In this document: positions 335 to 53,215 of the stretch, piece after piece | How the letters are laid out: every line of letters starts with the position of its first letter | Numbering within the stretch: the stretch's first letter is position 1 | Virus record (IMG/VR): IMGVR_UViG_3300021469_000002 | Span: 1-64,000 of that record | From: a virus | Reading direction: 5' to 3' (one strand) | Length of the DNA: 64,000 nt | Position numbers and translations under genes: made by a program | Notes under the pieces: generated by a model | Database searches by the model: none | What the model was told of the DNA's origin: nothing | What the model saw: the letters and a program-made list of their open reading frames with translations, nothing else

Positions 335-450
335 ATTTCAATATATATACCAAAATAGCAATATTAATATAAATCGCGAGACATAATATATGATATATGA
401 AACATAAAACACGAAACGCGAAATAGAAACAACGAATAGAGGTGAAAAGA

Positions 451-12273: not shown

Positions 12274-12274
12274 T

Positions 12275-12802
12275 ATGAAAAAATATGAAAAATCTTGGTT
12301 AGCAGGAGTAATAGATGGGGAGGGATCGATAATGATTTATGATTATATAGATAGACGTGGGTGGAGAAATAGACATGCTAGAATAGAAATTGTAAATACT
12401 AATAAAAATTTTATTGAAAGGGCAGGAAAATTGCTTAACTTAGATTCAAAAATTATTAAGCAAGTTAGAGGGAAAAATAGAAAACCACTTTATAGAGCAA
12501 GACAGGCAAACCATAAAAAAGTTCTATCAATTTTAACTCAGATATTACCTTATCTTATCATTAAAAAAAATAAAGCAATAGAAGCGATTGATTTCATTAA
12601 AAGAACTGATTGGGGTAAAAGAAGATTTTCTTCTACTAGATCAGAAAGTTTAAGAAAATCATGGAAATTGAGAAATATAAAATGGGCTATTAATTACGAC
12701 AAATGTCTGAATTGTGGTACTACTAAATTTAAACATTTTGGGCATGGATTATGTTCACGATGTTATATGAGGAGGTGGCATAAATCACACGAGTCCTCGT
12801 AA
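12275..12802 (+). CDS. Free-standing LAGLIDADG homing endonuclease
   Basis: A 175-residue protein from ATG 12275, with the motif WLAGVIDGEGSI at residues about 8-19 and a single LAGLIDADG copy, so it likely acts as a dimer. The C-terminus carries a zinc finger (CLNCGTTKF ... HGLCSRCYMRRW). It lies between the RmlC-like and epimerase genes, 1 nt after one and overlapping the other by 19 nt, so it has slotted into the operon without breaking a reading frame. Mobile by homing. Confidence 0.75.
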   Translation: MKKYEKSWLAGVIDGEGSIMIYDYIDRRGWRNRHARIEIVNTNKNFIERAGKLLNLDSKIIKQVRGKNRKPLYRARQANHKKVLSILTQILPYLIIKKNKAIEAIDFIKRTDWGKRRFSSTRSESLRKSWKLRNIKWAINYDKCLNCGTTKFKHFGHGLCSRCYMRRWHKSHESS

Positions 12803-13767: not shown

Positions 13768-15806
13768 TTTTTATAACTGGTGCTCATGGAAAATTGGGTT
13801 CTGAATTAAGTAAATTATATCCTAACGCTTTAAAACCTACACATAAAGAATTAGATATTACAAATAGAAAACAAGTTTTTGAATATATTAAAAAACACAT
13901 GCCAAACACTATTATTCATTTAGCAGCATTAACAGGAATAAGACAATGCGAAGAAAATAAAAAATTAGCTTGGGAAACTAATGTTCTGGGAACAAAAAAT
14001 CTTATAGATGCTTGTCTAGAACATAATCCAAGTGTTTATTTCATATATATGTCAACTCCGTGTTTTACAAAAAACACATTAATCTTAACTAATTTCTCAA
14101 TAAAACCGATTTCTTTGATTAGAAAAGGTGAAAAAGTAATTACTCATAAAGGAAATTTGAAAAAAGTTGTAAAAACATTTAAGCGAAAATATAAAGGAAA
14201 GATATTAAAAATCAAACCATTAGGAAATTTAGAGATTGAATGTACTCCTAATCATCCGTTTTTGGCTATTAAAAGAAAATATAAAAAAAATTATAAGGAA
14301 GACAAATTTAAAAATATAATAAAAAGAAAACCAAAATGGATTCTGGCGGGAGATTTAAACATTGGAGATATGTTGGTTGTTCCAAAAATAAAAATAACTG
14401 GATATGCTCCACGTTTTGTAAAAATATCAAATAAAAGACTCGAAAAATATTATGAAATAATGAAGCTTGAAATACCTAGATATGAATCTGGAAAAATTAA
14501 GCGTGGGATTTTATCAGAATTATCCAAAAAATATAAAATCAATAAGTTGGTTTTAAGTGGATGGATAAACAAAAAACATAAACCAAAACATCTTATTAAT
14601 TTAAAAATTAAAATTGATAAAAATTTGTCTTATTTATTTGGAATATTTGTTGCAGAAGGGTGGATACAATACAATAAAAGATTTTATAAAAAAAGAAAAA
14701 AATACTATAGTAGCAAAGAATTAGTTTTCGCTTTTGGTGAAGAACCAAATCTTATTGAAAAAACAAAAAAAATATTAAGGCAAAAATTTAATATTGATGC
14801 CAAAATTGAAAAAATGAAAAATCAAAAAGGCTATAAATTACATATTGTTGATAAAAATATAGCTAATTTATTTGAAAAATTATTTTATAATAAAAATGGT
14901 CATAGAGCATGGAATAAAAAATTACCAAATTGGTTTCTCTTTTTGAATAAAAATCTCATCTCCGCTTTTTTAAAAGGATATTGGGATGGTGATGGCTCAA
15001 TTTGGCAAGGACAGCATCCATTTGCTTCCTGTTCGACGGTTTCTTTTAAGTTGATAAATCAAATTAAACTATTATTGTTAAAACTAGGAATATATCCATG
15101 TTTAATTAAAAGAAAGCCAAGTAGTCAAATTTTAGGAAGAAAAGTAAAAGATAAAGAAAGTTTTCAATTAATTATTTCTGGCAAACAAATCAAAAAATTT
15201 GCTAAATTACTTGGTTTTTCTTTCAAATATGAGCCAAAATATCAAAAATTTATAGAAACTAAAGATTATTTTTTAGTTCCAATAACAAAAATAGAAATTG
15301 AAGATTTCAATGGTGATGTTTTTAATTTAGAAGTTTTAGATGATAATTCCTATTTATCTTCATACATATCTGTACATAATTGTGTTTTTTCAGGAAACCC
15401 AAAAGAAGCCCCATTCACTGAAAATTCTTTTCCCTATCCGAAAAATTTTTATTCTTTAACAAAATTATTGGGTGAAATGGCTGTAAGATTTACTGATTTA
15501 AGATGGCTTGTTATTAGAGGAAATTTTGTTCCTAGAGCGAAATGGCTCTATCCTAAAGCCTTTACTGATAGATGGGGAACATACTTGTTTGCAGATCAAT
15601 TAGCTATGGCAATAAAAGAGGTTGTTGAGAAAGGTTTATGTGGTATAGTTCATTTAGTTGGAGATAAAAAATTAAGTATGTATGAATTAGCCAAAATGAC
15701 AACACCAGATATAGAACCCATGACGCTTAAAGAATATTCTGGTCCACCTTTAACTCAAGATATGAGTTTAGATACTATTATTTGGCATAAATATAAAATT
15801 GATTGA
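13764..15806 (+). CDS. RmlD-like sugar reductase interrupted by an intein
   Basis: A 680-residue precursor. Extein residues 1-99 give ITGAHGKLGSEL, LDITNR and HLAALT. Residues 540-680 give CVFSGNPKEAPFTE and catalytic FYSLTKLLGE. Together they make a 240-residue dTDP-4-dehydrorhamnose reductase-like protein. The intein (100-539) sits in the conserved ST-x-x-VF site just before the active-site Tyr-Lys. Correct splicing would be needed for function. Follows the epimerase with a 4-nt overlap. Confidence 0.8.
   Translation: MIFITGAHGKLGSELSKLYPNALKPTHKELDITNRKQVFEYIKKHMPNTIIHLAALTGIRQCEENKKLAWETNVLGTKNLIDACLEHNPSVYFIYMSTPCFTKNTLILTNFSIKPISLIRKGEKVITHKGNLKKVVKTFKRKYKGKILKIKPLGNLEIECTPNHPFLAIKRKYKKNYKEDKFKNIIKRKPKWILAGDLNIGDMLVVPKIKITGYAPRFVKISNKRLEKYYEIMKLEIPRYESGKIKRGILSELSKKYKINKLVLSGWINKKHKPKHLINLKIKIDKNLSYLFGIFVAEGWIQYNKRFYKKRKKYYSSKELVFAFGEEPNLIEKTKKILRQKFNIDAKIEKMKNQKGYKLHIVDKNIANLFEKLFYNKNGHRAWNKKLPNWFLFLNKNLISAFLKGYWDGDGSIWQGQHPFASCSTVSFKLINQIKLLLLKLGIYPCLIKRKPSSQILGRKVKDKESFQLIISGKQIKKFAKLLGFSFKYEPKYQKFIETKDYFLVPITKIEIEDFNGDVFNLEVLDDNSYLSSYISVHNCVFSGNPKEAPFTENSFPYPKNFYSLTKLLGEMAVRFTDLRWLVIRGNFVPRAKWLYPKAFTDRWGTYLFADQLAMAIKEVVEKGLCGIVHLVGDKKLSMYELAKMTTPDIEPMTLKEYSGPPLTQDMSLDTIIWHKYKID
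14061..15380 (+). mobile_element. Intein with LAGLIDADG endonuclease (RmlD-like host)
   Basis: 440 residues. Starts with Cys (CFTKNTLIL) after extein STP and ends VHN before extein Cys (CVFSG), the canonical splice ends. Block-B-like CTPNHPFL and a closing FNLEVLDDNSYLS are visible. Two LAGLIDADG-type motifs, LFGIFVAEGW and LKGYWDGDGS, indicate an active-type homing endonuclease domain. Confidence 0.9.
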
Positions 15807-24784: not shown

Positions 24785-25636
24785 TTAAATAAATCTTACA
24801 AATTTGGGAAATCTCATTTTGTTATTTTTACTTAACTCTTGAAAAGATACCTCTACATATTGTGGTTTATGTTTATAAAAATAATCTATATCTTTTTGGT
24901 TTGGAACACTTATTCTTCCCAATTTTGTAATAAGATTTAAAACCCTTACATTTACACTTTTATTTTTTTGTGGACGGGATTTAGATTTAGTATCATAACC
25001 AATAATTTCTAATGTTTCAGTAAATTCTTTTTTACATTTTAACCAATAATTACTCCTTTTTTGAATATATGGGCTATCTATTCTTTTTGCTACTATTCCC
25101 TCAAATCCTTTATTAATTAAATCCTCAAAAATCTTAAGAGGATTACCCACAAACACATCAATTATTTTAATTAAATTATTTTTCTTAATTAATTCAGTTT
25201 CTAAAATATGCCTCCTCTCTATATATGGTAAATGAGTTAAATCATTATTATTAAGATATAAAATATCAAACACAATATATTTCACAGGGATTGTTTTACT
25301 TGCTAATTTACATTTTAATGGATTCATTAAATGTGTTCTACTTAATAAAGAAGGAAAATCCTTACTAATCATTTCTCCATCAAGAATAATATTTCTTATT
25401 GCATTATTGAATATTTTTTTTAATTTTTTAATATTAAATTCAGGAAATTGATAATTAGGAACAATTTCAAATAAATTGGTTTGGGAATTTCTTCTTTTAA
25501 TAACTAAAGAATCGTTTAAAAGATCTATAATAAATAAATTTCTTGAGCCATCCTGTTTTGGCTCTATAGCATAACCAACTAATTTATTTAAATCCTCTTT
25601 TTTAATTCTATTAGCCAACATAGGTTTTTCAATCAT
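24785..25636 (-). CDS. lig: ATP-dependent DNA ligase, minimal
   Basis: A 283-residue ligase with all nucleotidyltransferase motifs: I K-Q-D-G-S-R (27-32), III LDGEM (85-89), IIIa IVFDILYL, IV FEGIVAKR (178-185), V WLKCKK (198-203), then an OB-fold part (EIIGYDTK, RPQKNKSVNVRVL). No N-terminal DNA-binding domain, as in LigD-type ligase domains and small NHEJ ligases. It lies next to a 53-residue ORF and Ku in the same operon, which points to end joining. Confidence 0.88.
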   Translation of the reverse strand: MIEKPMLANRIKKEDLNKLVGYAIEPKQDGSRNLFIIDLLNDSLVIKRRNSQTNLFEIVPNYQFPEFNIKKLKKIFNNAIRNIILDGEMISKDFPSLLSRTHLMNPLKCKLASKTIPVKYIVFDILYLNNNDLTHLPYIERRHILETELIKKNNLIKIIDVFVGNPLKIFEDLINKGFEGIVAKRIDSPYIQKRSNYWLKCKKEFTETLEIIGYDTKSKSRPQKNKSVNVRVLNLITKLGRISVPNQKDIDYFYKHKPQYVEVSFQELSKNNKMRFPKFVRFI

Positions 25637-25868: not shown

Positions 25869-26612
25869 CTACTTGAGTTTGGAAACGATTTTTTCCAAAC
25901 CTTTACTAAAATCATCTTCCTTTTTTGAAATGGTAGGTTTCTTTTTCTTTATTATTGCCTCAAACAATTCATTAGTGTATTCATCTTTAATGTCTTGTAA
26001 TTTTATGTTTCTTGTTTCTTTTTCTATGCTTTCCAATAAAAGTAATGCATTATTCACATCTTTTTGTGAAACATCTACAGGTTTTAATGGTGTTGGCGTT
26101 CTAATTTGTTCTACATAAATTAATTGAAGCAAAACAAGAAATTTACCAAAAGGTTCTACTAATCCTATGTGTTTTCTGTTTCTTATAAAGTAATCTATTA
26201 ATAATGTTTTGTTTCCCTTAATCAAAGCATTTAATAATATAAAGTATCCTTTTTCAAACTTGGCTTTTGGTATCAAATAGTATACTTTGTCTATTAAATA
26301 TTTCATTTGGTTTGTGTCTTTATTGTTCAAAACCTTTAAAACCTTACAAGATTTATCCTGTTTCTCTTTGATATAATTTATTAATTCTGAATCAAAGATT
26401 ATTTTGTTGTCTTTGTTTATTTTATATGCTTTTTTTAACTCATTATATTGAATTTCCTTATTACATTTTTCGCACCATCTTTTTATTTTTATGTCGTGTC
26501 CCTTTGAACATACATTACTGAAATTAATTGTTTGATAATCCGCAAATCCCGAAATTGCTAATGGTAAATTTAACATTCCAAACTCAAGATTAATGGTTCC
26601 TAAACTTTTCAT
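25869..26612 (-). CDS. ku: Ku DNA end-binding protein
   Basis: A 247-residue protein matching prokaryotic Ku. N-terminus SLGTINLEFGMLNLPLAI corresponds to iw-k-GsIsFGLVniPV. A zinc-like set (VCSKGHDIKIKRWCEKCNKE) follows. The core has YYLIPKAKFEKGYFILLNAL and FIRNRKHIGLVEPFGKFLVL, then IYVEQIR. These are the ring-forming elements of bacterial and archaeal Ku, which bind DNA ends and recruit ligase. Length fits the family (about 250-280). In the same operon as an ATP-dependent ligase. Confidence 0.82.
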   Translation of the reverse strand: MKSLGTINLEFGMLNLPLAISGFADYQTINFSNVCSKGHDIKIKRWCEKCNKEIQYNELKKAYKINKDNKIIFDSELINYIKEKQDKSCKVLKVLNNKDTNQMKYLIDKVYYLIPKAKFEKGYFILLNALIKGNKTLLIDYFIRNRKHIGLVEPFGKFLVLLQLIYVEQIRTPTPLKPVDVSQKDVNNALLLLESIEKETRNIKLQDIKDEYTNELFEAIIKKKKPTISKKEDDFSKGLEKIVSKLK

Positions 26613-29760: not shown

Positions 29761-30293
29761 GTGTTTATAATTTATCAAGGCGATGTATTAAAAGCATTAA
29801 AACTCATTCCAGACGAATCTGTAGATTGCATCATTACCAGTCCTCCTTATTATGGTCAGAGATTTTATGGCGAAGAGACTAATGTAATATGGGACGGAAA
29901 ACCCGGTTGTAATCACGAATTTGTCTTAAACAAAATAAAAGACCCTATGGATAGAGGTGGTAGTGGAGATAAAGAAAAAAAAACTGGGAAAGAGAGTTAA
30001 ATGTCCAACTTGGGAGATGAAAAATACAGAGGTGGGTTTCTGTAGGAAGTGTGGTGCTTGGTATGGTGGTCTTGGTTTGGAGCCTCATCCGAAAATGTTT
30101 ATAAAACACATATGCGATATAACGGAGGAGTGTATGCGTGTTCTCAAGAAAGAAGGGAATATGTTTTTAAACATTGGAGATACGTGGGCAACTGCTACAC
30201 ACAAAGGTGGTTACTAAATATGTAGAAATAGCGAAAAAGCGTGTGGGTTGGAATCTGGGATTAGGTGTTGAATTTAAATTTATTAAACTCTAA
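29761..30293 (+). pseudogene. Decayed DNA methyltransferase (frameshift and internal deletion)
   Basis: Frame 1 (from GTG 29761) gives IIYQGDVLKALKLIPDESVD and the catalytic TSPPYYGQR of amino-methyltransferases. At an A9 run near 29978 the frame shifts; frame 2 continues with GKRVKCPTWE, FCRKCGAWYGGLGLEPHP, and NMFLNIGDTWA, and stops at 30215-30217. A third frame then reads KYVEIAKKRVGWN, a typical methyltransferase C-terminus. The DPF-x-GSG SAM-binding segment is absent. This is a family with TSPPY and a Cys-rich insert, now inactive. Confidence 0.75.
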
Positions 30294-30661: not shown

Positions 30662-31321
30662 ATGATGAACAAGCAAAAAGGTAATATGTATCCTTGGGTA
30701 ACTCACACATGGAATGCTATTCGTGGAAAATGTCCATATGATTGTAATTATTGTTATATGAAAAATTTAATAAAAAATAAAAAACTAAGATTAGAAGAAA
30801 AAGAACTTGAAACTGATTTAGGGCAAAATAATTTTATTTTTGTTGGTTCTTCTATAGATATGTTTGCTGAAACGATTCCGAGAATATGGATTGAAAAAGT
30901 TTTGGCTCATTGTAGAAAATATCCAAATAACACTTATCTTTTCCAATCCAAAAACCCAAAACGCTTTTATGAATTTATTAAATTAAGAATGTTCCCCAAA
31001 AGAACTATATTAGGAACGACAATAGAAACTAATAGAAACTATGAAACAAAAGCTCCTCAGCCAAAAGAAAGATATATGGCAATGAAAAATATTAAAGAAT
31101 TTGAAAAAATGGTTAGCATAGAACCTATTATGGATTTTGATTTTAATATTATGGTTGGAATGATATATTTTATTAGACCCAAATTCGTTTCAATCGGGGC
31201 TGATAGCAAAGGGCATAATTTACCTGAACCACCAAAAGAAAGACTTATTAAATTAATCGAAGAACTTACCAGATTTACTAAAGTTAAAGTTAAGGACAAT
31301 CTTAAACGATTATTAATATGA
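30662..31321 (+). CDS. DUF5131/Gp37-Gp68-like radical SAM protein
   Basis: A 219-residue protein starting PWVTHTWNAIRGKCPYDCNYC (CxxxCxYC iron-sulfur site in THTWN context), then FVGSSIDMFAE, YLFQSKNPKRF, ILGTTIETNRNY and VSIEPIMDFD. This is the layout of the phage Gp37/Gp68 (DUF5131) family, related to spore photoproduct lyase-like enzymes; substrate unknown. Often found near phage replication or packaging genes. Stop overlaps the terminase ATG. Confidence 0.75.
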   Translation: MMNKQKGNMYPWVTHTWNAIRGKCPYDCNYCYMKNLIKNKKLRLEEKELETDLGQNNFIFVGSSIDMFAETIPRIWIEKVLAHCRKYPNNTYLFQSKNPKRFYEFIKLRMFPKRTILGTTIETNRNYETKAPQPKERYMAMKNIKEFEKMVSIEPIMDFDFNIMVGMIYFIRPKFVSIGADSKGHNLPEPPKERLIKLIEELTRFTKVKVKDNLKRLLI

Positions 31322-32709
31322 GAACATTAGAACAAATTTTTGGAGATGAGAAAGAAGAAAAATTCCTACTAGATTGTAGATTTGATTTTGGTAAATGGGT
31401 TAGAAGAGTACATGGTTATCAATATAAATGGTTTCATAAAGAATGGGTTGATGCTCTTGAATCTAAAAAAAGGATAGCTATCCTAGCTCCTACGGGTTTT
31501 GGTAAAACAACAATACTTGCTGTATGTTATTCGATATGGAAAACTTTTTATAATCCTTATTGGCAGGGTTTAATAGTTTCTAATTCTGTTCCTCAAGCAA
31601 CGAAAATAATAGATCAAATCAAATTTGAATTAACTGAAAATGAACTATTACAGCGTTTAATTCCTAGTTATTCTCAATTAACTTGGAGCAAAACAGAAAT
31701 TTCTACAGCCACTAAAGGAAAAATATTTTGCAAACCTTATGGTGAAAGTGCAAAAGGAGTGCATGTAGACTATGTTTTATGCGATGAGGCTTCATCTTAT
31801 CGTGACCATAATATATTTTTTCGGTATATAGTAACAAGAGCAACAGCAAAAAGAGGTTGTGTTGCTGCAATCTCAACGCCTGTAAATGAAACTGATTTAA
31901 TGATTTCTAAATTAATGAAAAACCCGGAATACTGGCACAAGGCATACCCTGCTATACAAAATGGAAAATCTATATGGCCGGAAAGATTTCCATTAGAATG
32001 GCTAAGAAAAAGAGAAGCGGAGATTGGTAAAACAGCATTTGCTCAACAATATTTATGTAGAATAGTGCCTGAATCAGAAGAAATTCCATTTCCTATGAAT
32101 TTATTAATAAAGGCACATGATTTGAATTTAAGATTTATGGATAAAAGACCAGAAGGAGATACTGATCCTTATTATGTTGGTTGCGACTTTGCTCTTGCTA
32201 TAAAGGGAGATTGGTCTGCATTTGTAGTTGGTAAGAAAAGAAAAGATAATAAAATTCAAGTCGTTAAGATATTTAGATTTAGAGGAATGTTGCCATCAGC
32301 TCAAATGGAAGTTTTAAGAAGTATTAATAATAATTATCAACCCAATAGGATGCTTTTGGATAAATCTAATTTTGGAGAAATGTTTGTTAGAGATTTAATA
32401 GCAGAAAATCTTCCTGTAGTTGGTTTTCCATTTACACAGGAAAATAGAAACTCGGCGTTTGCAAAAGCTATAACATTATTCAATGAAGGTAATATAATAT
32501 TGCCATATAGTAAAGAGGAAACTCCAACATCAAAAATGATTGACAGACTAGAACACGAATTAACTCATTTTGTTGTTGATAAGACACCAAGAGGATACGC
32601 AACATATAAAAGTTTATCTGATTATGATGATGTAGCTATTGCTTTTATATTAATGGTTAAGGCGGCATCGGAAGAAAGAAAGTTTTTATCATACATGAGG
32701 GCTAGGTAA
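31318..32709 (+). CDS. terL: Terminase large subunit
   Basis: A 463-residue packaging motor. Walker A APTGFGKTT (57-65), Walker B VLCDEA (153-158), coupling motif ISTP (185-188), then an RNase-H-fold nuclease with YYVGCDFALAIKGDWSAFVV (D290, D298) and a late acidic YDDVAIAFIL. All expected parts are present. It cuts concatemers and pumps DNA into proheads. The portal gene follows after an intergenic promoter. Confidence 0.92.
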   Translation: MRTLEQIFGDEKEEKFLLDCRFDFGKWVRRVHGYQYKWFHKEWVDALESKKRIAILAPTGFGKTTILAVCYSIWKTFYNPYWQGLIVSNSVPQATKIIDQIKFELTENELLQRLIPSYSQLTWSKTEISTATKGKIFCKPYGESAKGVHVDYVLCDEASSYRDHNIFFRYIVTRATAKRGCVAAISTPVNETDLMISKLMKNPEYWHKAYPAIQNGKSIWPERFPLEWLRKREAEIGKTAFAQQYLCRIVPESEEIPFPMNLLIKAHDLNLRFMDKRPEGDTDPYYVGCDFALAIKGDWSAFVVGKKRKDNKIQVVKIFRFRGMLPSAQMEVLRSINNNYQPNRMLLDKSNFGEMFVRDLIAENLPVVGFPFTQENRNSAFAKAITLFNEGNIILPYSKEETPTSKMIDRLEHELTHFVVDKTPRGYATYKSLSDYDDVAIAFILMVKAASEERKFLSYMRAR

Positions 32710-32813: not shown

Positions 32814-34091
32814 ATGGTTGTACTGGACTTCAATTCTATTAGAGGTATTTTTAAGGGTTCTCAAAGACAAGTAATCCAGACTCTAGCAATAAGAAGCAGT
32901 GCAGGCGAAACGAAGACAATAAAATCAGATGAAGAAGAAATAAAAAGAGTTTCTCCGCTTGATTTAGAAACAATATATATTAGAGAAGGAATGGTTTATA
33001 ATTGGATTAATAAATTTGTTGAATCATTTCTTTCTTCCGATTTCAGAATTAATACATCTAATACAAGAGAACGCAGAATAATGGAAGATTTTTTAAGAGC
33101 TTCAGATTTTAGAAATTTATTAAAAACTACTGTTGCTCATATGTTGATTTACGGGAATGCTTTCTGGGAAAAAATAACTAATGATGGACCTAAAATTCTT
33201 GCTGTTACATGGATTGATCCAAAAAGTATGGATGTTAAAAGAACATCAATGGGTAAAATTATTTATGATATGGATGGTAAACCAACGGCTTATGTGCAAT
33301 ATGTTAAATGGAATGTTGACACTTCCAAAGTTCCAAAAGAAAGATTAATACAACAACAGCCAATGTTTTCTTATCAAAGCGGAAAAGGTATACTTTTAAA
33401 AAGAGAGGAAATTGTTCATTTTACTTTAAATACTGTGGGAGATTCTTGGTGGGGGGTTGGGTTAATTGAACCAATATATAATATAGTTAGGGTAAAACAA
33501 AACGCTGAAGCGGGATATGCAGAAGCTATTCAAAGAGTTGCTTATCCAAGAATATGGGTAAGAATTGGAGATGAACAACATCCGCCAACACAAGAACAAA
33601 TAGATGATGTATGGAATCAATTAAAAGGATTAGAAACAAAACATCAGTTTGTAACGCCATATTATTACAATCCACAAATTCTTGAATCAAAAAGGGTTGA
33701 AAGATTAGCACAAAATTTAAAATATTTTTCTGATCAAATAGTTGCAGGTTTGGGAGGACCAAAACCGTTTATTACTGGACTAGGTACAGATACAAATAAG
33801 GCAACATTAAATGATCAAAAAATATTATTTGAAAGACAGTTAAAAGCATTACAAGAGCAAATTAGTCATACCATAATGAAAAATGTGTTTGCTGATATAG
33901 CAAAACAGTATAGATTTCGTTCTGTTCCTGTATTAGTTTGGGAAGAAATTTCTACAGAAAGTTTAGACAGTAAAGCAGATAGACTGGTTAAATATGTTAA
34001 TTCTGGATTGCTTATTCCAGACAAGGAAATAAGAAATATAGTAAGACGGTCGGAGAGATTACCGGAGGAGCCCAACGATATTCAAAAATAA
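32814..34091 (+). CDS. Portal protein
   Basis: A 425-residue protein with the usual portal features: LLKTTVAHMLIYGNAFWEK, VHFTLNTVGDSWWGVGLIEP, and LAQNLKYFSDQIVAGLGGP. The order (stem, wing, crown helix) fits HK97/SPP1-type portals, which form the dodecameric ring for DNA entry. Right after terL. Confidence 0.88.
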   Translation: MVVLDFNSIRGIFKGSQRQVIQTLAIRSSAGETKTIKSDEEEIKRVSPLDLETIYIREGMVYNWINKFVESFLSSDFRINTSNTRERRIMEDFLRASDFRNLLKTTVAHMLIYGNAFWEKITNDGPKILAVTWIDPKSMDVKRTSMGKIIYDMDGKPTAYVQYVKWNVDTSKVPKERLIQQQPMFSYQSGKGILLKREEIVHFTLNTVGDSWWGVGLIEPIYNIVRVKQNAEAGYAEAIQRVAYPRIWVRIGDEQHPPTQEQIDDVWNQLKGLETKHQFVTPYYYNPQILESKRVERLAQNLKYFSDQIVAGLGGPKPFITGLGTDTNKATLNDQKILFERQLKALQEQISHTIMKNVFADIAKQYRFRSVPVLVWEEISTESLDSKADRLVKYVNSGLLIPDKEIRNIVRRSERLPEEPNDIQK

Positions 34092-34534: not shown

Positions 34535-37500
34535 ATGAAATTAACGATTTTAGGTTCGGGTCCTACTAAACCCGTTATGGGTAAAGGAAAGAATAGACGT
34601 AGGAATAGTTCTATGCTTTTACAAACAAGAAACGGAATTAATATTCTTTTTGATTGCACTCCTAATTTTTATGAACAAATGCAAACCTTTGCTGATAATA
34701 TTAATAGAATAGATTATATTATTATTAGCCATGGTCATGCAGATGCAATTGGTGGAATACCGCAATTAAAACATTGGCTACAAGAAAAGAAACAAGAAGA
34801 TAAACCAATTGTATACATGGAAAAAGAAACCGAAGCCAGAATAAGAGAAAAGTTTAAAGACATTGAACATATTAATATAAAAAATTTTACCCCGTACAAA
34901 GTTTTAAATTTAGACTATCTAAAAATAGTTCCATTTAGGGTAATACACGCTGAGGCATTTCCAACAGGTCATAAATTTCCATGCGTAGGATTCAGAATTG
35001 ATAATAAAGTTGTATATGCTGAAGATATGGAAAAAGCACCAGAAAAGTCTATACCATATTTTGATAAATCTCATGTAATTATTATCGATGCAGCGATGTG
35101 GTTTGGAAAAAGTATTAGAGGACATATGAATATAGAAGAAGCATTACAATTTGTTAAAAAATTTAAAACTAGGAAAGTTGTTTTCACACAAGCAGGACAC
35201 ACTTATCCTGATTATGTAACAGCTTTAAAAGAAATTAAAAAGCGTTGGAAAGAAATAGGCGGAAGTTCAAAAGTTGATATTGAATTAGCTTATGATGGTA
35301 TGGAAATTAATATACCAGATTATTTCCAAAAAATAAATGATTATCTTATTGAGTTAAGAGAGGGAATATATCTTCCTGCTCCTCATGCAGAATTGCTTTG
35401 GAAAGGAAATAAGAAATATATTGTTAAAGCAAAAAAATATTCAAAAATGTTAGACAGGCTTCTTTATGTTTGTGATCAAAAATACGCTTATGCAATAATT
35501 AAATTAAAAAAGCCATTTATGATTAATCTCGAAGAATTTAATAAGTATAAACCAAAACATCTTGTTAGTAATGAAGAAAGAAAGAAATGGTGGGGTAATA
35601 AAAGGTATTTATTTCTTTATCCATTTGATATAGTTGAAAAATTCAAAAAACCTAAAGAAATTAAAGTTGAACGAGGAGTACAAACTTTCATAAAGAATGT
35701 TAAATTTTTAGCAGAACTCTCTACTATTGAACTTATTGAGGATGTCGCAGAATATGACCCACATACTGTTGGTAATGCACAGTTGGCTGATGATTGGAGA
35801 ATTGTTTGTGCTTGGTATGCAACCAAGAAAAAAGGAGGCAAAATTAAATTTTCATTAGAAACTATAGTAAATTTAGCAAAACTAATTTATGATGAAATAG
35901 TTAAAAGAGTTAAAAGAGGAGATATGAAACATGAGTTTCAGCCAGAAAAAATGACTCCATTTTCAAAACAATTATATGATATAGTTTCTCAAAATAAAAT
36001 TATTAAAACACCAGAAGAAGAATGTAAAGATACAGAATATACTGTAGATGTCGAGGAAGTAAAGCCCTTAATAGACCAATTTAAAGAGTTTAAAATAATT
36101 AAAGATTTTATTTCAATTGTGGGTTCGACAGTCAAAAGAGAACCGGGTCATAAACCAAATGATATAGATTTGCATATTCGTTTAAGAACGCCACCAGATT
36201 ATATTAAACGAGCAATAGAAGTAAGAATACTAAAAATGCTTCCAGCAGAGATTGCAAATAAAATTCATTTTGTATGGGGAGATCCAGAGGGTTCACATGA
36301 TTCTTTTATTCCTCTTTATGATCTTGCATTAGTAAGGACAGAACCAAAAGTTGTTGAAATGAAAGATACAACAACAGCTCAAGTTCCTGAACTTCTTCCA
36401 ACTGTTTGGATTGTTGGAAAAAAAGTTAGGGTTAAAGACAAAATTGGAAAAATAAAAGAAATAAAAAAAGAACCAAAAATATATATAATTGAATTTGAAG
36501 ACGGAACAACCATAGAAGCAAAAGAGGAAGAACTAAAAGCTATAGATTTTATTCCTCTCAAACCTTTTTTACCTCTTAAAAGCACATCTATATATAACAA
36601 AACAAAATTTTATGATCTTAAAAAAATAATAGAAGTACTTAATCCTAGTGAAGAAAATCTTTATATAGTTGAAGAAAAATTTGATGGTTTTAGAGGGGTA
36701 TTACATAAAAAAGGAAATAAAGTAAAAATCTTTTCGGATCAAGGAAAAGATATAACTGATGCTTTTCCTACAATATGTGATCAAGCACTTGATTTAACAG
36801 CAGAAGATATTATACTTGATGGGGAAATTGTTCCTTATGATAAAAAAGGAAGATCTTTGGGAAGAAGAGGATTAATGGAGTTCATTGGAGCAATTAGATC
36901 AGGCAAAAAATTAGATGATTCGAATATTAAATATCATGTCTTTGATATTCTTTATTATAAAAATAAATCTTTACACGATGCCAGACTTTATGAAAGAAAA
37001 AAAGTACTTAACCTATTAAAATTCACAAAAAATATAGTCAAAGTTCCATTTGTTGTTGTTGCTAATAAAGAACAATTGGAAAAAGCAATAAAATTATTCA
37101 GGGCTTTACCAAAAAGCGAAGGTGCGATGATAAAGGCTTATAATTCTACTTATCCAGTTAGTGGAAAAACTCCTTTCTGGATTAAATTTAGAAACGCAAG
37201 AGATATTCATGTCAAAGTTTTAAAAGTTTTGCCTGTTAAAGGAACAGAAAATGCTTGGAGATATATGTGTGGCATTGAAATTCCAGAAAAAAAAATTAAA
37301 GAATTTAATCCTGATAAACTTATGAAATATAATTCAAAAACCTATATGGTTTTTGGCAATACATTTAATACTTCTGTAAAAGCAAAAATTGGAGATATCA
37401 TTGATGTTGATGTTCAAGAAATTTGGAAACATGTTGGTCCTAAAGGAATACATTATAGCTGGCATAAACCCGATGTTCGATTTCTATCTGAAAGAAAGAC

Positions 37501-39355
37501 TACTTCAACAATAGCTGATTTAGATGCAATAGTTGATGCTATAGGAGTTTTGGTTAAAGAATATGGAGAAGAAGCAATTTTAAAAGAATTTGAATTAATG
37601 AAACAAGAATTAAAAAAAATAAAAGATGAAGGAGAAACTAGAGCAGAATATGCAACCAAGTTTTGGGCGTCTCATTGGTGGAAATCATATCCAAAAACAG
37701 GAAAAGGTAAAATGGTCTACCAACATCATTGGAGAGGGTTGACAGAAGAAGAAGCAAAATGGGATGAAGAAAAGTTATTACAAACTGATAGAAGCGTTCA
37801 TGGTGATTTAAGAATGCAGTTTAATCCTAATACTTTATTTGGTTTTACGATATTCTTAGGCGAAGTAGAAGATTTAAGAAAAGGAAGGGATTTATGGAAT
37901 CTTAAAGAGCCAGATAAATTGCAAGGAACATGGAAACTTTGGCAGCCTTGTATCTCGGAAGATTCTTTTGTGATAAAAAATCAAAATATAATTCAGGCTA
38001 AAGAGCTTCATATAGGCGATAAAATTTTGGATGCTAATGGCGTTTTTAGTCCCATAACTTCAATTGATGAAATAGAAGACAACGAACAGTATTTGATTAA
38101 ACCAAGTTATGGCTTACCTATCCAAGTGAGTAAATTGCATCCGTTTTTAGTTAACGGGTTAAGCGAAAGCCATACATTAGCACTGCTTTCACACAAGAAA
38201 AGAAAGATAATCAAACATAATTGTTTGCCCGTTTGGAAAAACGCAAAAGACTTAAAGATTGGCGATATATTACTTTTCCCTAAGTTAAAAATTAAGAAAA
38301 TTAATTATATTGGCACTTATGAAGAGGGAAAAATAATCGGATTCTTTCTTGGAGATGGGCATTTGTTTAGAGCTGGAAAAGATTATAAAACTCTATATTG
38401 TGCTTTAACCTTTAATGCAAAAGAAGATATCAATTCATATAAGAACTTGCTGAGAAAAATGGGTGTCCATAGCTGGATTTCCAGCCCCCCATCTGCAAAA
38501 AATACAAAAAATCTGGTATTTACATGTAAAGGAAGAATCAAAGATCTCATATTTCAGGTTTTTGACAAAGAAAAACAAATACCGCACAAATATTTGTATG
38601 CAAATAAAAAATTTATTAAAGGTTTGATAGACGGGTTAGTGGATTCTGATGGATATGATAAAAACAATCGAAGGTTCATAATTAATACATCAGCTTCAAT
38701 AATAAATGGAGCTGTTTTATTGTTACATCGGTTAGGTCATATTCCAAGTATCCGTTATAGAGAGAACAGTGATGTTGGCTTTAGGCTTCGTAAAAAGAAA
38801 AGCAAATTAAAAAAAGTTTTTGAAATAAGTTGGACTAAAAAACCAAAACATAAAAATTGGTTTGATTATGAAAATTTTTACGGTTTCAGGGTCAGACATA
38901 TAGAAAAAGCAAAACCCAAAAGGTTATTGAATATAATCACGAAAAGCCATACATTATGCTCCCCCTATTTCATTATGCATAATTCCGCGTGGTTAGATGT
39001 CGGCAAGAAAAAACCTTATGTATCAAAACCATCTGAAGTGGGAGCAACTCCAAAAAAATATGCAAAATTTTTTGCTGAAGATTGGGGTACATATGAAATT
39101 GGTGTATGGAGAGAGCACTTTTTTGAGTTTTTCTTCCATGGAAAAAAATTAAAAGGTAGATATTTGATTGTGTATGCTCCTGTGGGAGAAGGAGGAAGAA
39201 AATGGTTAATTGGAAAACCAGCAGATCAAACTCCTTATGCTGATAAACATAATATAGAAGATATAATAAAAGAATTAAAAATGAAAAAACAAGAATGGTT
39301 AATTTGGGCAAAACCTGGTGTCAAACCCAAGCTTATTAATGTGAAAAGGCGTTAA
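34535..39355 (+). CDS. Giant MBL-NTase-DNA ligase-PE fusion with intein
   Basis: A 1606-residue precursor (1261 after splicing). Residues 1-260: metallo-beta-lactamase fold close to PhnP types (SHGHADAIGG at 65-74, GHMNIEEAL); the usual D-H is D-A. About 275-390: ASCH-like (YAIIKLKKPFMINLEEF). About 525-600: nucleotidyltransferase (VGSTVKREP, NDIDLHIRL). About 700-1000: DNA ligase with K-F-D-G-F-R, ILDGEIVPYD, YHVFDILYY, WIKFRNA. About 1060-1606: LigD phosphoesterase-like (VHGDLRMQF, FFFHGKKLKGRY, RKWLIGKP), split by the intein. Placed between portal and prohead protease. With Ku and a second ligase nearby it suggests viral end joining or genome-end processing. Confidence 0.75.
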   Translation: MKLTILGSGPTKPVMGKGKNRRRNSSMLLQTRNGINILFDCTPNFYEQMQTFADNINRIDYIIISHGHADAIGGIPQLKHWLQEKKQEDKPIVYMEKETEARIREKFKDIEHINIKNFTPYKVLNLDYLKIVPFRVIHAEAFPTGHKFPCVGFRIDNKVVYAEDMEKAPEKSIPYFDKSHVIIIDAAMWFGKSIRGHMNIEEALQFVKKFKTRKVVFTQAGHTYPDYVTALKEIKKRWKEIGGSSKVDIELAYDGMEINIPDYFQKINDYLIELREGIYLPAPHAELLWKGNKKYIVKAKKYSKMLDRLLYVCDQKYAYAIIKLKKPFMINLEEFNKYKPKHLVSNEERKKWWGNKRYLFLYPFDIVEKFKKPKEIKVERGVQTFIKNVKFLAELSTIELIEDVAEYDPHTVGNAQLADDWRIVCAWYATKKKGGKIKFSLETIVNLAKLIYDEIVKRVKRGDMKHEFQPEKMTPFSKQLYDIVSQNKIIKTPEEECKDTEYTVDVEEVKPLIDQFKEFKIIKDFISIVGSTVKREPGHKPNDIDLHIRLRTPPDYIKRAIEVRILKMLPAEIANKIHFVWGDPEGSHDSFIPLYDLALVRTEPKVVEMKDTTTAQVPELLPTVWIVGKKVRVKDKIGKIKEIKKEPKIYIIEFEDGTTIEAKEEELKAIDFIPLKPFLPLKSTSIYNKTKFYDLKKIIEVLNPSEENLYIVEEKFDGFRGVLHKKGNKVKIFSDQGKDITDAFPTICDQALDLTAEDIILDGEIVPYDKKGRSLGRRGLMEFIGAIRSGKKLDDSNIKYHVFDILYYKNKSLHDARLYERKKVLNLLKFTKNIVKVPFVVVANKEQLEKAIKLFRALPKSEGAMIKAYNSTYPVSGKTPFWIKFRNARDIHVKVLKVLPVKGTENAWRYMCGIEIPEKKIKEFNPDKLMKYNSKTYMVFGNTFNTSVKAKIGDIIDVDVQEIWKHVGPKGIHYSWHKPDVRFLSERKTTSTIADLDAIVDAIGVLVKEYGEEAILKEFELMKQELKKIKDEGETRAEYATKFWASHWWKSYPKTGKGKMVYQHHWRGLTEEEAKWDEEKLLQTDRSVHGDLRMQFNPNTLFGFTIFLGEVEDLRKGRDLWNLKEPDKLQGTWKLWQPCISEDSFVIKNQNIIQAKELHIGDKILDANGVFSPITSIDEIEDNEQYLIKPSYGLPIQVSKLHPFLVNGLSESHTLALLSHKKRKIIKHNCLPVWKNAKDLKIGDILLFPKLKIKKINYIGTYEEGKIIGFFLGDGHLFRAGKDYKTLYCALTFNAKEDINSYKNLLRKMGVHSWISSPPSAKNTKNLVFTCKGRIKDLIFQVFDKEKQIPHKYLYANKKFIKGLIDGLVDSDGYDKNNRRFIINTSASIINGAVLLLHRLGHIPSIRYRENSDVGFRLRKKKSKLKKVFEISWTKKPKHKNWFDYENFYGFRVRHIEKAKPKRLLNIITKSHTLCSPYFIMHNSAWLDVGKKKPYVSKPSEVGATPKKYAKFFAEDWGTYEIGVWREHFFEFFFHGKKLKGRYLIVYAPVGEGGRKWLIGKPADQTPYADKHNIEDIIKELKMKKQEWLIWAKPGVKPKLINVKRR
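37949..38983 (+). mobile_element. Intein with LAGLIDADG endonuclease (ligase-PE host)
   Basis: 345 residues (1139-1483) from Cys after extein KLWQP to HN before extein Ser. Splicing blocks LHIGDKILDANG, VSKLHPFLVNG and YFIMHN are present. Endonuclease motifs IIGFFLGDGHL and LIDGLVDSDGY. It interrupts the PE-like domain. Its DNA looks somewhat less AT-rich than the flanks at its ends, consistent with separate arrival. Confidence 0.88.
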
Positions 39356-39564: not shown

Positions 39565-40743
39565 ATGAGTGAAGATTTACAATCGATTTTTGAGCATCCA
39601 ATTGTACAACAATTAGCAGAAAAGGCGTGGAAGGATTTAGAATCAGAAGTAAAATTACCTTATATCTTAAAAGATAAAATTTTGATGTCTCCGGGCGTAT
39701 GGAACAATTTTTATTATAGTCCAGAAGTTATTAGAAAAATTTTTAAAAACACTAATTGGGACGATCCAAAAATTAGGGCTTTATTTTTAGATCACGTTGA
39801 CGATAGAGCAGCGGAATGGATTGGAGAAGTAATTAATCCAAGATTAGTAAATGGTAATGTTATAGGTGACTTGGCTATATTAGACAAGCCGACAGCAATT
39901 AAATTGGCTTATGGAGCTAAGTTTGGTGTTTCACCCAAAGTTATCGGAGAAGCTGATTACAATAAAAAAATGTATGACGGTCATTTTGAAAATTTTTCTG
40001 TTGTAATTAATCCTGCTGTTAAGACTACGTTTCTTAACAGCGAAATAAAAATAAAAAATAAAGGAGGAAAAATAATGCCAAAGACTAAAGAAGAACTTCA
40101 AGAAGAAGAGTCTGAGGCATCCGAAGAAGCAGAAGAACCAGCAGAAGAACAAGAAGAAAAACAAGAAGAAAAACAAGAAGAAAAACAAGAAGAAAAAGCC
40201 GAAGAGCTTGCAGAAAAACTTGCAGAAAAGGTTGCTGAAATTCTCAAGAAAAAGAAATATGCATATCCAGAGGAAATGAAAAAGAAAAAGAAATATGAAT
40301 ATCCAGAAGAAATGAAAGAAGAAATAGCAAAATTAAAAGCAGAGATAGAGGAACTAAAAAAGAAGAAGAAAAAATATCCATATGAACAAAAAGCAGAAGA
40401 AAAAAATGAATTAAAAGAAGCAGTAGAAACTCATCTATCTGCTTATACAGACTTTATCAAAAAATTCTTGAAGAAATATCCTAAAGCAACATTAAAAGAT
40501 GCAGCAAAAGCATGGGCTAAAGAGCATGGAGAATTAGAAGAAAAAACTTCAATAACTGTAGAAGACTTAAAAACAGAAATTGGCGAAATTGTAACGGCTA
40601 AAATGTCCGAGTTTGGTATTAAGCCAATAACAGTTGCAGCTAAATTCATTAATCCTCAGGCAGAAGGTTATGTTGAGGAAGCAGAAGAGCATGAGCTTGA
40701 CCAAGCAATGTTTGATATGATTAAACAGGGGGTGGAAAAATGA
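39565..40743 (+). CDS. Prohead protease fused to scaffold
   Basis: A 392-residue protein. The N-terminal 165 residues look like a phage prohead protease (ALFLDHVDDRAAEWIGEV with His, KFGVSPKVIGE with Ser, FENFSVVINPA). A Glu/Lys-rich coiled coil (about 175-290) and a helical C-terminus (about 330-392) make a scaffold. An internal in-frame ATG at 40075 with a strong ribosome site should also give free scaffold. Protease and scaffold in one ORF upstream of capsid is a common tailed-phage layout. Confidence 0.8.
   Translation: MSEDLQSIFEHPIVQQLAEKAWKDLESEVKLPYILKDKILMSPGVWNNFYYSPEVIRKIFKNTNWDDPKIRALFLDHVDDRAAEWIGEVINPRLVNGNVIGDLAILDKPTAIKLAYGAKFGVSPKVIGEADYNKKMYDGHFENFSVVINPAVKTTFLNSEIKIKNKGGKIMPKTKEELQEEESEASEEAEEPAEEQEEKQEEKQEEKQEEKAEELAEKLAEKVAEILKKKKYAYPEEMKKKKKYEYPEEMKEEIAKLKAEIEELKKKKKKYPYEQKAEEKNELKEAVETHLSAYTDFIKKFLKKYPKATLKDAAKAWAKEHGELEEKTSITVEDLKTEIGEIVTAKMSEFGIKPITVAAKFINPQAEGYVEEAEEHELDQAMFDMIKQGVEK
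40075..40743 (+). CDS. Internal-start scaffold protein (in frame)
   Basis: ATG 40075 (codon 171 of the protease-scaffold) is preceded by AAAGGAGGAAAAATA, one of the best Shine-Dalgarno sites here. It would make a 222-residue scaffold-only product, like Nu3 within lambda gene C. The start lies just at the domain boundary (PKTKEELQEEE). Confidence 0.65.
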   Translation: MPKTKEELQEEESEASEEAEEPAEEQEEKQEEKQEEKQEEKAEELAEKLAEKVAEILKKKKYAYPEEMKKKKKYEYPEEMKEEIAKLKAEIEELKKKKKKYPYEQKAEEKNELKEAVETHLSAYTDFIKKFLKKYPKATLKDAAKAWAKEHGELEEKTSITVEDLKTEIGEIVTAKMSEFGIKPITVAAKFINPQAEGYVEEAEEHELDQAMFDMIKQGVEK

Positions 40744-41753
40744 GAACAATACAAGAATTAGCTGATACCACGACATCCCATAATACAGACCTTTTAGCAA
40801 AAAGATGGTTAGATAAAATAATAGATTCAGCAAGAAAAAAGATGTTCTTTTTGAGTATTGTTAGTCAATATGATGTGCCTCCAGGAACCAAAGACATAGT
40901 AATTCCATATAGAAAAGGTTATTGGAGCACTCTTGGAACTACAGTAACTGATACTACTACAGAAGGGACATCAGTAGTTTTCACAGCAATGAATAATTTG
41001 GAAGGTTTAACATTAACACCGTCGCCACATTCCTATGGTATAGCAATATCCAATCACGCAATTAGAACAACAGCAACCAATTTAATTCAGGCTGCAAGAG
41101 AAGAATTAAGTGATTACTGGGCAGATGTTGTTGATAAAGCCATAGCTGCAGCAATTAATGGAGCCCCCGTAGCAACTTCTTCAGCAAAGGGTGCTTCTGA
41201 ATTATTTGGCGGAGATGCAACCTCGACATCAACATTAGAAGCTGGGGATATTTTAACACCATCTCTTATAGTGAAGGCAAAAGCAAGATTACAAGGAACA
41301 AAAATGTATTACTGGTCCGGGGGATCTGAATCAGTTTCAAATGAATCTAAAACGCCTTGGTTCTCTGAACCTAATTCACCTTTTGTAATTTTCATAGGAC
41401 CAGAACAGGAATACGTTTTACTAACAGATAGTCAGTTTACTAATGCAGCCGAATATGGTGGTAATGAAATAGTTCTTAATGGGGAAATAGGAAAGTATCA
41501 AGGAGTTAAAGTAATAACATCAGTTAATACTACAGCAGCATCGAATTGGGGTTCAGGAGGAAATTTAGCAGGACACAACTGTTATGTGGTTAAAGCAGGA
41601 GTATGTGCAGCATTAGCTTGGGGACAAAGACCAAGACTTAGAGTATTCGAATATCCAAGTGAGTTAGAAACAAGATTAATACTTGAACAAGCATATGCAG
41701 TAGATTCGCTTCATAACGATGCCATTTGTCATATAAAGGTTTTAGATGAGTAG
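40740..41753 (+). CDS. Major capsid protein, HK97 fold (N4 gp56-like)
   Basis: A 337-residue protein with MFFLSIVSQYDVPPGTKDIV, YGIAISNHAIRTTATNLIQA, KYQGVKVITSVNT, and a final AWGQRPRLRVFEYPSE. These resemble N4-gp56-type capsid proteins. Directly follows protease/scaffold with a 4-nt overlap. It assembles the icosahedral shell. A structured RNA-like region follows. Confidence 0.82.
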   Translation: MRTIQELADTTTSHNTDLLAKRWLDKIIDSARKKMFFLSIVSQYDVPPGTKDIVIPYRKGYWSTLGTTVTDTTTEGTSVVFTAMNNLEGLTLTPSPHSYGIAISNHAIRTTATNLIQAAREELSDYWADVVDKAIAAAINGAPVATSSAKGASELFGGDATSTSTLEAGDILTPSLIVKAKARLQGTKMYYWSGGSESVSNESKTPWFSEPNSPFVIFIGPEQEYVLLTDSQFTNAAEYGGNEIVLNGEIGKYQGVKVITSVNTTAASNWGSGGNLAGHNCYVVKAGVCAALAWGQRPRLRVFEYPSELETRLILEQAYAVDSLHNDAICHIKVLDE

Positions 41754-52020: not shown

Positions 52021-52139
52021 ATGATAATCAGAAAAGTTTGGAAAAACAAAGCAACAAACCAATTGTTGGTGTCAATCCCGAAAAATGAAGGAATAAAAGA
52101 AGAGATTATGTTAAAATAGTCAAGGTGGAGGAAGAATGA
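52021..52139 (+). pseudogene. Frameshifted AbrB/SpoVT-like ORF upstream of tnpB
   Basis: The current frame gives 32 residues (IRKVWKNKATNQLLVSIPKN...) and stops at 52117-52119. Restoring one G near 52101 continues as G-I-K-E-G-D-Y-V-K-I-V-K-V-E-E-E and ends at TGA 52137-52139, overlapping the tnpB ATG (ATGA). This is the usual AbrB-like small protein shape (swapped-hairpin DNA-binding fold). A one-base deletion therefore appears to have broken it. Confidence 0.65.
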
Positions 52140-53215
52140 TAATCTGTAAAACTATAAAGGCAAAAATAATAGGATTGACAAAAACCAAAGCCAAACTCAT
52201 TAGTCAAGAATATCAAAATTTTCAATTGGTTTTGAAAGGAAAAAATGCTCCTCTATACTCAGCCATTAAGCAACAAGCTTTAAAACTGAAAAAACAAATT
52301 AATGGAAATAAGAGAGAATATCCTTTGATAATAAGAAGGGATGTTCTAAAAATAGAAAAACAAAATACTAAGCTTAGCAAATATTGGTTTAAAATTCCCT
52401 GTTATTATAGAAGAGGTGGAGTATGGGTTGCCATTAAATTCTCTCCTACTCAAGAAGAATTATTAAATCATTCTATTAGAGAAACAAAGCTTGTTAAGAA
52501 AAATAACAAATGGTTTTTATTGATAACTGTTCAAAAGGAAGTTGAAATTAAAAAATCATATTCCTCAATTTTAGCCATAGACTTTGGGCTGAAATGGATT
52601 GCTACGGTCTGTGACCTAAGTAATCTTAGACCAAAGTTTTATGGTAATGAATTGAGGAAAATAAGAGGGCACTATTTCTATCTGCGAAGGAAATTAGCGA
52701 AGAAAGAAATTAGAGGATATTATAAATGGATAAAAAGAAGTAAAGAAGCGAGAATTGTAAATAACTTTCTCCATAAAATTTCTAGAGAAATAGTTAATTG
52801 GGCAAAGGAAACCAACAGCTTGATAGTTTTTGGAAAACTAAAAGGAATAAGGAAGCAAAATAAGGGAAGGAAATTCAATAGAAAATTGAACTCATTTCCA
52901 TATTACAAATTGGCTCAATACATCAAGTATAAAGCAATTGAGGAAGAAATTTTTGTTTTAGAAGCTCCAGAGGCATATACTTCCCAGATATGTCATAAAT
53001 GCGGAAAGAAAGGGATAAGAAAAAACGGATTGTTCAAATGTGAGTGTGGGTTAGAAGATAACGCAGATAGGAATGGTGCTATAAACATTGGAAAACGAGC
53101 TTTGGGGTATATCTCCAAAGTAGGGGTAGTTGTGACACTACCCAGAACTGAGGCTTTAGACATAAAGATTCCGATTAACAATCCAGTGAGCGACCTCAGA
53201 AGCTCAGGTTTTTAA
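52136..53215 (+). CDS. tnpB: TnpB RNA-guided nuclease, RuvC-rearranged type
   Basis: A 359-residue TnpB: SILAIDFGLKWIATV (RuvC I, Asp), IVFGKLKGIRKQNKGR (RuvC II region), zinc finger SQICHKCGKK and KCECGLEDN, and NADRNGAINIGKRAL (RuvC III, Asp). The usual catalytic Glu in IVxEDLKGI is Gly here. A Glu in LEAPEAYTSQIC may take over, as described for rearranged TnpB groups. TnpB cuts target DNA using a guide from the element's right end. Confidence 0.85.
   Translation: MIICKTIKAKIIGLTKTKAKLISQEYQNFQLVLKGKNAPLYSAIKQQALKLKKQINGNKREYPLIIRRDVLKIEKQNTKLSKYWFKIPCYYRRGGVWVAIKFSPTQEELLNHSIRETKLVKKNNKWFLLITVQKEVEIKKSYSSILAIDFGLKWIATVCDLSNLRPKFYGNELRKIRGHYFYLRRKLAKKEIRGYYKWIKRSKEARIVNNFLHKISREIVNWAKETNSLIVFGKLKGIRKQNKGRKFNRKLNSFPYYKLAQYIKYKAIEEEIFVLEAPEAYTSQICHKCGKKGIRKNGLFKCECGLEDNADRNGAINIGKRALGYISKVGVVVTLPRTEALDIKIPINNPVSDLRSSGF

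What the first reader, a model, noticed from the sequence alone, without database searches (positions are those of the whole stretch)
34535..39355. Giant MBL-ASCH-NTase-ligase-PE fusion in the packaging module
One polypeptide carries an MBL-type fold, a nucleotidyltransferase, a second DNA ligase and a LigD phosphoesterase-like domain, encoded between portal and prohead protease. LigD normally links ligase, PE and a polymerase, so this looks like a new LigD-like architecture made by a virus. Its genomic place suggests it acts on packaged DNA ends, possibly carried in the virion. With Ku and the small ligase it may define an undescribed viral end-processing system.
Basis: partly seen in the sequence, partly recalled or inferred. 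Interest (0 to 1): 0.9.

Follow-up and report, generated by a model that had tools for sequence, protein, structure and literature searches.

The report
Virus head-linked DNA-end repair fusion protein
A tailed virus, probably of archaea, makes one giant protein carrying a set of DNA-end trimming, healing and joining enzymes, and dozens of relatives carry the same set in shuffled order next to, or fused to, virus-head proteins, which suggests that these viruses load a DNA-repair kit into their particles.

Summary
Relatives lack it, so the mature protein should be 1261 aa. PE and ASCH identity hold by profile and structure search. The fusion is not unique: the same parts, usually in other orders and splits and often with a DNA methyltransferase added, sit beside the portal in dozens of metagenomic virus contigs and in the ANME virus ANMV-1. 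An ASCH-only query found 36 loci, 32 of which carry the ligase. Parts are fused in one ORF to the portal (2 contigs) or prohead protease (more than 15), which strongly suggests a capsid-internal location. Best reading: a head-packaged DNA-end processing 'polyvalent' protein that heals and joins viral genome ends at packaging or after ejection. Location is well supported; reaction and timing are inferred. Ku is present here but in only 2 of 40 records, so it is not part of the conserved system. No description was found in the papers searched.

The parts
31318..32709 (+). large terminase subunit
   Evidence: Terminase_6C 4e-8
32814..34091 (+). portal protein (Mu type)
   Evidence: Portal_Mu 5e-17; homologues next to the same module in relatives
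34535..39355 (+). giant fusion ORF, 1606 aa (1261 aa after predicted intein splicing)
34535..35308 (+). MBL-fold phosphodiesterase/nuclease-like domain (aa 1-258), metal motif HxHxDA instead of HxHxDH
   Evidence: Lactamase_B_2 4.5e-24; 3PY5 3.8e-15; motif
35348..35713 (+). ASCH domain (aa 272-393)
   Evidence: fold search: nine ASCH structures first; Pfam ASCH over cut-off in relative L013
36056..36376 (+). minimal Pol-beta-type nucleotidyltransferase (aa 508-614)
   Evidence: G-S, DxD, third Asp conserved; NTP_transf_2 in 6/17 relatives
36605..37534 (+). ATP-dependent DNA ligase, NTase + OB folds (aa 691-1000), motif I KFDG
   Evidence: DNA_ligase_A_M 3.2e-28; motifs I-V
37688..37948 (+). 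LigD-type PE domain, N-terminal part (equivalents of His42, His48, Asp50, Arg52)
37949..38983 (+). intein with LAGLIDADG endonuclease (345 aa; Cys1 ... His-Asn|Ser)
   Evidence: LAGLIDADG_3 5.5e-7; absent from relatives at the same place
38984..39304 (+). LigD-type PE domain, C-terminal part
39565..40743 (+). prohead protease with scaffold-like tail
   Evidence: hhalign 96.6%, 6e-10 to L011 protease domain, which matches proheadase models
40740..41753 (+). major capsid protein
   Evidence: Phage_capsid_4 4e-5, below its cut-off; conserved next to protease
25869..26612 (-). Ku (accessory; not conserved with the module)
   Evidence: Pfam Ku 1e-22; only 2 of 40 records
24785..25636 (-). small NHEJ-type ATP-dependent ligase just downstream of Ku on the same strand
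   Evidence: DNA_ligase_A_M 1.3e-30; NHEJ_ligase_lig 1e-31, below that model's cut-off

Best explanation
The protein is a head-associated, multi-enzyme DNA-end processing protein of a tailed virus, probably archaeal: a 'polyvalent' protein built around a LigD-like ligase + PE core. Shown by sequence and structure comparison: the domains, the intein, the place between portal and prohead protease, and in relatives one-polypeptide fusions to portal or prohead protease. Inferred from that: it is brought into the prohead with the portal/protease complex. Inferred: once the genome is packaged, or once it has been ejected with the genome, the MBL domain trims or hydrolyses damaged ends, the PE domain converts 3'-phosphate or 3'-ribonucleotide ends to 3'-OH, the NTase adds nucleotides or groups, and the ligase seals nicks and joins or circularises the genome ends. 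The DNA methyltransferase present in many relatives would mark the same DNA against host restriction. Of the two timings, action on ejected DNA in the new host is preferred over action during packaging. The intein must splice out to restore the PE.
For: (1) PE and ASCH identities by structure and profile. (2) Conserved catalytic residues: ligase Lys in the motif I strings of the 73 aligned ligase domains, NTase G/DxD/D, PE metal ligands His-His-Asp plus Arg. (3) Synteny: of 46 contigs outside the marine group, 31 have a portal found upstream; in 21 the module ORF overlaps the portal end or starts within 110 bp, in several by the 4-base overlap typical of coupled genes; a protease follows in 17. 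(4) The module goes with several portal families: Mu-type, Phage_portal_3 in ANMV-1, phrog_12, phrog_3753. (5) An ASCH-only query of 121 aa returned 36 loci; 32 also carry LIG, 33 NTase, 25 PE, 20 MBL. Domain order is permuted while the parts list persists. (6) One-ORF fusions: portal-ASCH in L054 and L179; Peptidase_S78_2 at the C-terminus of NTase-MTase-LIG-PE and similar chains (L141 3.9e-32, L150 1.7e-29, L145 2e-29, L147 3.6e-28, L181 3e-25, L149 2.6e-22, L151 3e-12; full list); MBL-PE-PE-protease in L011. (7) Capsid-packaged, ejected multidomain proteins are known (DarB of P1, MuF fusions; PMC5512222), and Ku+LigD is rare in archaea (10 of 243 genomes, PMC7719229), so a virus may have to bring its own end joining.
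Against: No virion proteomics or biochemistry. In the PE, equivalents of His84 and Tyr88, whose mutants are dead in P. aeruginosa LigD (PMC8656161), are Gln and Trp in the window, so activity may be altered or lost. The MBL lacks the last His of HxHxDH. A 1261-aa enzyme next to the portal could also act only in the infected cell. Several contigs lack one part: no NTase call in L148, no MBL in the ANMV group, no PE found in L146 or L155. Host assignment rests on relatives and halovirus-like portals, not on this contig.
Confidence: 0.5

Rival explanations
1. Packaging-stage repair: the protein sits at the portal/terminase motor during head filling and heals nicks, gaps and branched or modified ends in the concatemer so that the motor does not stall. 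It stays in or near the prohead and is not needed after ejection.
For: Same location evidence: directly after portal, portal-ASCH fusions (L054, L179), protease fusions. Ligase, PE and nuclease suit clearing of nicked DNA.
Against: Does not explain why a DNA methyltransferase keeps joining the set, nor why enzymes would need to be inside the prohead (protease fusion) rather than on the terminase side.
Confidence: 0.25
2. Virion-borne counter-defence: the enzymes act on host defence products or on host-inflicted damage to incoming DNA (MBL/NTase on nucleotide signals or nucleic-acid modification, methyltransferase against restriction, ligase/PE repairing restriction or nuclease cuts), so genome-end joining is not the main task.
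For: MBL is weakly similar to Apyc1; Pol-beta NTases, DNA methylases and 2H phosphoesterases are listed as conflict domains in polyvalent proteins (PMC5512222); methyltransferase insertions in many relatives.
Against: The most constant core is ligase with NTase, PE and ASCH, all plausible DNA/RNA-end enzymes; no PADLOC model hits the window protein.
Confidence: 0.15
3. Ordinary replication/repair enzymes that happen to lie in the late operon, with fusions reflecting only read-through of neighbouring genes.
For: Domains are split and fused freely; in L004 two ORFs overlap by four bases.
Against: The same parts recur next to portal/protease in dozens of divergent contigs with different portal families, and are in frame with portal or protease in many.
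Confidence: 0.1

Closest known systems
LigD (bacterial/archaeal NHEJ ligase; PE superfamily PF13298)
   Same: ATP-dependent ligase and PE domain in one chain; PE metal-binding residues kept; homology by profile and fold
   Different: No AEP polymerase domain; extra MBL, ASCH, Pol-beta NTase, often methyltransferase; PE lacks His84/Tyr88 equivalents; viral ligases form a clade apart from the LigD ligases sampled; Ku usually absent
Phage polyvalent proteins and MuF/portal fusions (Iyer et al. 2017, PMC5512222)
   Same: Giant multidomain proteins encoded in the packaging region, fused to virion proteins in relatives, shuffled domain orders, methylase and Pol-beta NTase among the parts
   Different: That paper's text does not mention DNA ligase or ASCH, and it reports few such proteins in archaea; no zincin peptidase was found in the chains scanned here
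ANMV-1 virus 'ATP-dependent DNA ligase' AJP62006 (KP703175)
   Same: NTase-ligase-PE-PE chain 7 bp after a portal gene (annotated MutT-like hydrolase, in fact Phage_portal_3 3e-22)
   Different: No MBL or ASCH; second PE copy instead; no intein; annotated only as a ligase
Ku-encoding mycobacteriophages (Omega, Corndog) that use host LigD to circularise (own knowledge)
   Same: Virus-encoded end joining for genome circularisation is the proposed task
   Different: There the virus brings Ku and borrows LigD; here the virus brings a LigD-like head-linked enzyme and usually no Ku

Membership tests
LigD | ATP-dependent ligase domain with catalytic Lys (KxDG) | tested here: met
   DNA_ligase_A_M 3.2e-28; KFDG
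LigD | PE domain, sequence and fold | tested here: met
   3P43 2e-9; seven LigD PE structures first in Foldseek; LigD_N over cut-off in relative L011. The window's own PE alone does not reach the Pfam cut-off
LigD | PE catalytic residues His42, His48, Asp50, Arg52 | tested here: met
   alignment
LigD | PE residues His84 and Tyr88 | tested here: not met
   Gln and Trp in the window; variable and Trp in most viral relatives
LigD | AEP polymerase domain (present in full LigD, absent in some) | tested here: not met
   no such Pfam or NCBIfam domain in the protein
LigD | works with Ku | tested here: inconclusive
   Ku present in this virus but in only 2 of 40 records, many of them fragments
Phage polyvalent protein | two or more effector/enzyme domains in one chain encoded with packaging/head genes | tested here: met
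Phage polyvalent protein | fusion to a virion protein in relatives | tested here: met
   portal-ASCH L054, L179; S78_2 protease fusions
Phage polyvalent protein | hallmark zincin peptidase or LPD domains | tested here: not met
   none in Pfam scans of the window protein and relatives
Phage polyvalent protein | present in virion and injected | not testable with these tools
   needs proteomics
MBL nuclease/phosphodiesterase (PhnP/RNase Z type) | HxHxDH metal motif | tested here: not met
   HGHADA in window; HxHxD[A/C] in most of the family, HxHxDH only in L017 and L115
Intein | Cys1, C-terminal His-Asn, following Ser/Cys/Thr, endonuclease, absence in homologues | tested here: met

The most novel reading that the evidence does not exclude
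A previously undescribed class of virion-borne DNA end-joining kit: tailed viruses, mostly of archaea, load a LigD-like multi-enzyme (nuclease, nucleotidyltransferase, 3'-healing esterase, ligase, methylase) into the head through fusion or coupling to portal and prohead protease, and use it to finish, join and mark their own genome ends without Ku.
Probability: 0.4. Interest if true: 0.9.

Novelty: new variant of a known kind. Interest (0 to 1): 0.8.

Why it matters
If true, viruses carry an end-joining machine in the particle itself, independent of Ku, in hosts that rarely have NHEJ. It would explain how some archaeal tailed viruses make their linear genomes usable on entry, extend polyvalent proteins to DNA repair and to archaea, and reveal an MBL/ASCH/NTase/ligase/PE/methylase parts list that stays together although its order is reshuffled. 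It gives a direct test (virion proteomics) and a source of new ligase-PE enzymes.

Tried and rejected
Pfam on the window protein alone does not see the PE, because the intein splits it and the family is divergent. An N-terminal prohead protease in the Zixiibacteriota protein L048, suggested by eye, was not supported by hhalign, so I do not count it. A conserved Ku partnership was tested and rejected. The NTase half of the window model was poor (pLDDT mostly below 60), so its identity rests on motifs and relatives' Pfam hits. Profile search of the NTase against the PDB gave only a marginal MNT-antitoxin hit (0.094). PE-only alignment was too diverse for a collection scan. Literature searches found no description. 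The BFVD fold search for the PE gave one significant hit without a name. The ligase tree needs 8 changes for protease fusion (7 forced by well-supported branches), but some 'unfused' rows are ORFs cut by contig ends, so I claim several gains or losses, not a number.

Full report
What is there. The ORF 34535-39355 (+) is 1606 codons without interruption in a 79,771-bp virus record. The order around it is large terminase 31318-32709, portal 32814-34091, a 105-aa ORF, the giant ORF, prohead protease 39565-40743, capsid 40740-41753. Pfam sees an MBL domain, a DNA ligase and, unexpectedly, a LAGLIDADG endonuclease at residues 1361-1419. That endonuclease belongs to an intein of 345 residues (37949-38983): it begins with Cys, ends with His-Asn before Ser, and relatives without it align straight across the junction (WKLWQP|SAWLDV against FKLLEP|LAWAKV). 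It sits beside the position equivalent to His84 of the PE active site, a place typical for inteins.

Domain identity. MBL: PhnP/RNase Z type (3PY5 3.8e-15; NCBIfam RNase_Z 3.3e-17 and PhnP 1.6e-6, both below the equivalog cut-offs), with the metal motif HxHxDA; most of the family has Ala or Cys where HxHxDH has its last His. ASCH: the model of the window's own sequence finds nine ASCH-type structures first, and relative L013 passes the Pfam ASCH cut-off. NTase: G-[SG], DxD and a third Asp are conserved; 6 of 17 relatives match NTP_transf_2 and 3 match Pol beta palm, but the window's own copy matches nothing on its own and its model is poor. Ligase: all motifs, KFDG. PE: the profile of 14 family members hits the archaeal LigD PE structures 3P43 and 3P4H. 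The AlphaFold2 model of the close relative L004 (pLDDT 95.1) matches 3P43, 3N9B, 5DMP, 3N9D, 3P4H and 2LJ6 before anything else. LigD_N passes its cut-off in L011 (2.3e-15). Metal ligands His42, His48, Asp50 and Arg52 are conserved; His84 and Tyr88 are not. Because those two are essential in P. aeruginosa LigD (PMC8656161), PE activity is likely but not certain.

Relatives. The first scan gave L003 and L004. L004 has the same gene order, but MBL-ASCH-NTase (628 aa) and ligase-PE (916 aa) are two ORFs overlapping by four bases, and a degenerate extra ligase copy precedes the active one. The best phage record is ANMV-1 of ANME-1 archaea: its 'ATP-dependent DNA ligase' is NTase-ligase-PE-PE, 7 bp after a gene that Pfam calls Phage_portal_3. 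Wider scans and domain profiles show MBL-ASCH-NTase-ligase-PE in one ORF also in L008, L010, L132 and L133, and with a D12 methyltransferase inserted in L013, L128 and L135. In 46 contigs outside the marine group, a portal is found upstream in 31; in 21 of these the module overlaps the portal end or starts within 110 bp; a protease follows in 17. Twenty-one near-identical marine contigs carry a ligase with a degenerate PE in front of a prohead protease.

A parts list, not a fixed fusion. To test this without the ligase, I scanned with the ASCH domain alone (121 aa). Of 36 loci, 32 carry the ligase, 33 the NTase, 25 the PE and 20 the MBL in their flanks, although the order differs: NTase-ligase-MBL-ASCH-methyltransferase-PE (L187-L189), ASCH-MBL-ligase-PE (L194-L198), methyltransferase-ASCH-NTase-ligase-MBL-PE (L176). 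Seven of the 36 are contigs already found before.

Link to the head. In L054 (a Methanosarcinales MAG) and, independently, L179, portal and ASCH are one ORF. In L141, L145, L147, L149, L150, L151 and L181 the chain ends in Peptidase_S78_2/XkdF, the prohead serine protease, far over its cut-off. A profile made from these finds the same in L014, L018, L038, L041, L143, L153, L166 and L174, and NTase-protease in L194-L200. L011 joins MBL-PE-PE to a protease. Prohead proteases work inside the prohead, so enzymes in one chain with them are expected to be inside it as well. This is the strongest argument that the window's protein, coupled between portal and protease genes, is a head-associated protein. 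It is not proof of presence in the mature particle.

Mechanism. Shown: parts, order, conserved catalytic residues, fusions. Inferred: assembly into the prohead, action on viral DNA ends, and timing. I prefer action on ejected DNA (trim, heal, add, seal, methylate) because protease fusion brings the enzymes into the lumen, methyltransferases repeatedly join the set as in the virion-borne DarB of P1 (PMC5512222), and archaea rarely have Ku-LigD NHEJ (PMC7719229). Packaging-stage repair is the main rival. In the window it lies upstream of a small NHEJ-type ligase on the same strand and looks like a separate minimal NHEJ pair.

Known or new. The nearest families are LigD (function) and phage polyvalent proteins (context). 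The protein fails LigD's polymerase domain and two PE residues, so it is LigD-like, not a LigD. Among 50,697 phage records only ANMV-1 carries the multi-domain chain, and the ASCH domain had no match at all. No paper in the searched library describes the system; papers outside that library were not searched. I rate it a new variant of a known kind, with a 0.4 chance that it deserves to be called a new class.

Noticed in passing
window 13764-15806 (+): A second intein, in a dTDP-4-dehydrorhamnose reductase-like (RmlD) gene; intein_Nterm passes its NCBIfam cut-off.
   Followed up: partly
window 12233-12802 (+): Sequence resembles a free-standing LAGLIDADG homing endonuclease between sugar-nucleotide genes (by eye).
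   Followed up: no
window 442-696 (+): Short ORF that looks like an archaeal histone fold protein (by eye only).
   Followed up: no
window 29761-30217 (+): Two overlapping ORFs read like a DNA methyltransferase broken by a frameshift, just before the terminase; many relatives have a methyltransferase inside the fusion.
   Followed up: no
window 52136-53215 (+): ORF resembling IS605-type TnpB (zinc-finger CHKCG ... ADRNGAINI) inside the tail region.
   Followed up: no
L004:7872-10622: Tandem ligase domains, the first without the catalytic Lys motif (EERPKG), the second with KYNG: a pseudo-ligase next to an active-looking one.
   Followed up: partly
L048:6110-8362 (Zixiibacteriota MAG): Bacterial contig with a ligase-PE chain and an upstream portal (phrog_3753): the kit may extend to bacterial phages.
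   Followed up: partly
L020-L037, L039, L040, L042: Marine contigs with 849-861-aa ligase plus degenerate PE directly before a prohead protease; possibly magroviruses, whose 'DNA ligase' is reported in PMC10160649.
   Followed up: partly
L005:1913-3193 (ANMV-1): Gene annotated 'MutT-like phage hydrolase' is a portal protein (Phage_portal_3 3e-22): misannotation in GenBank.
   Followed up: yes
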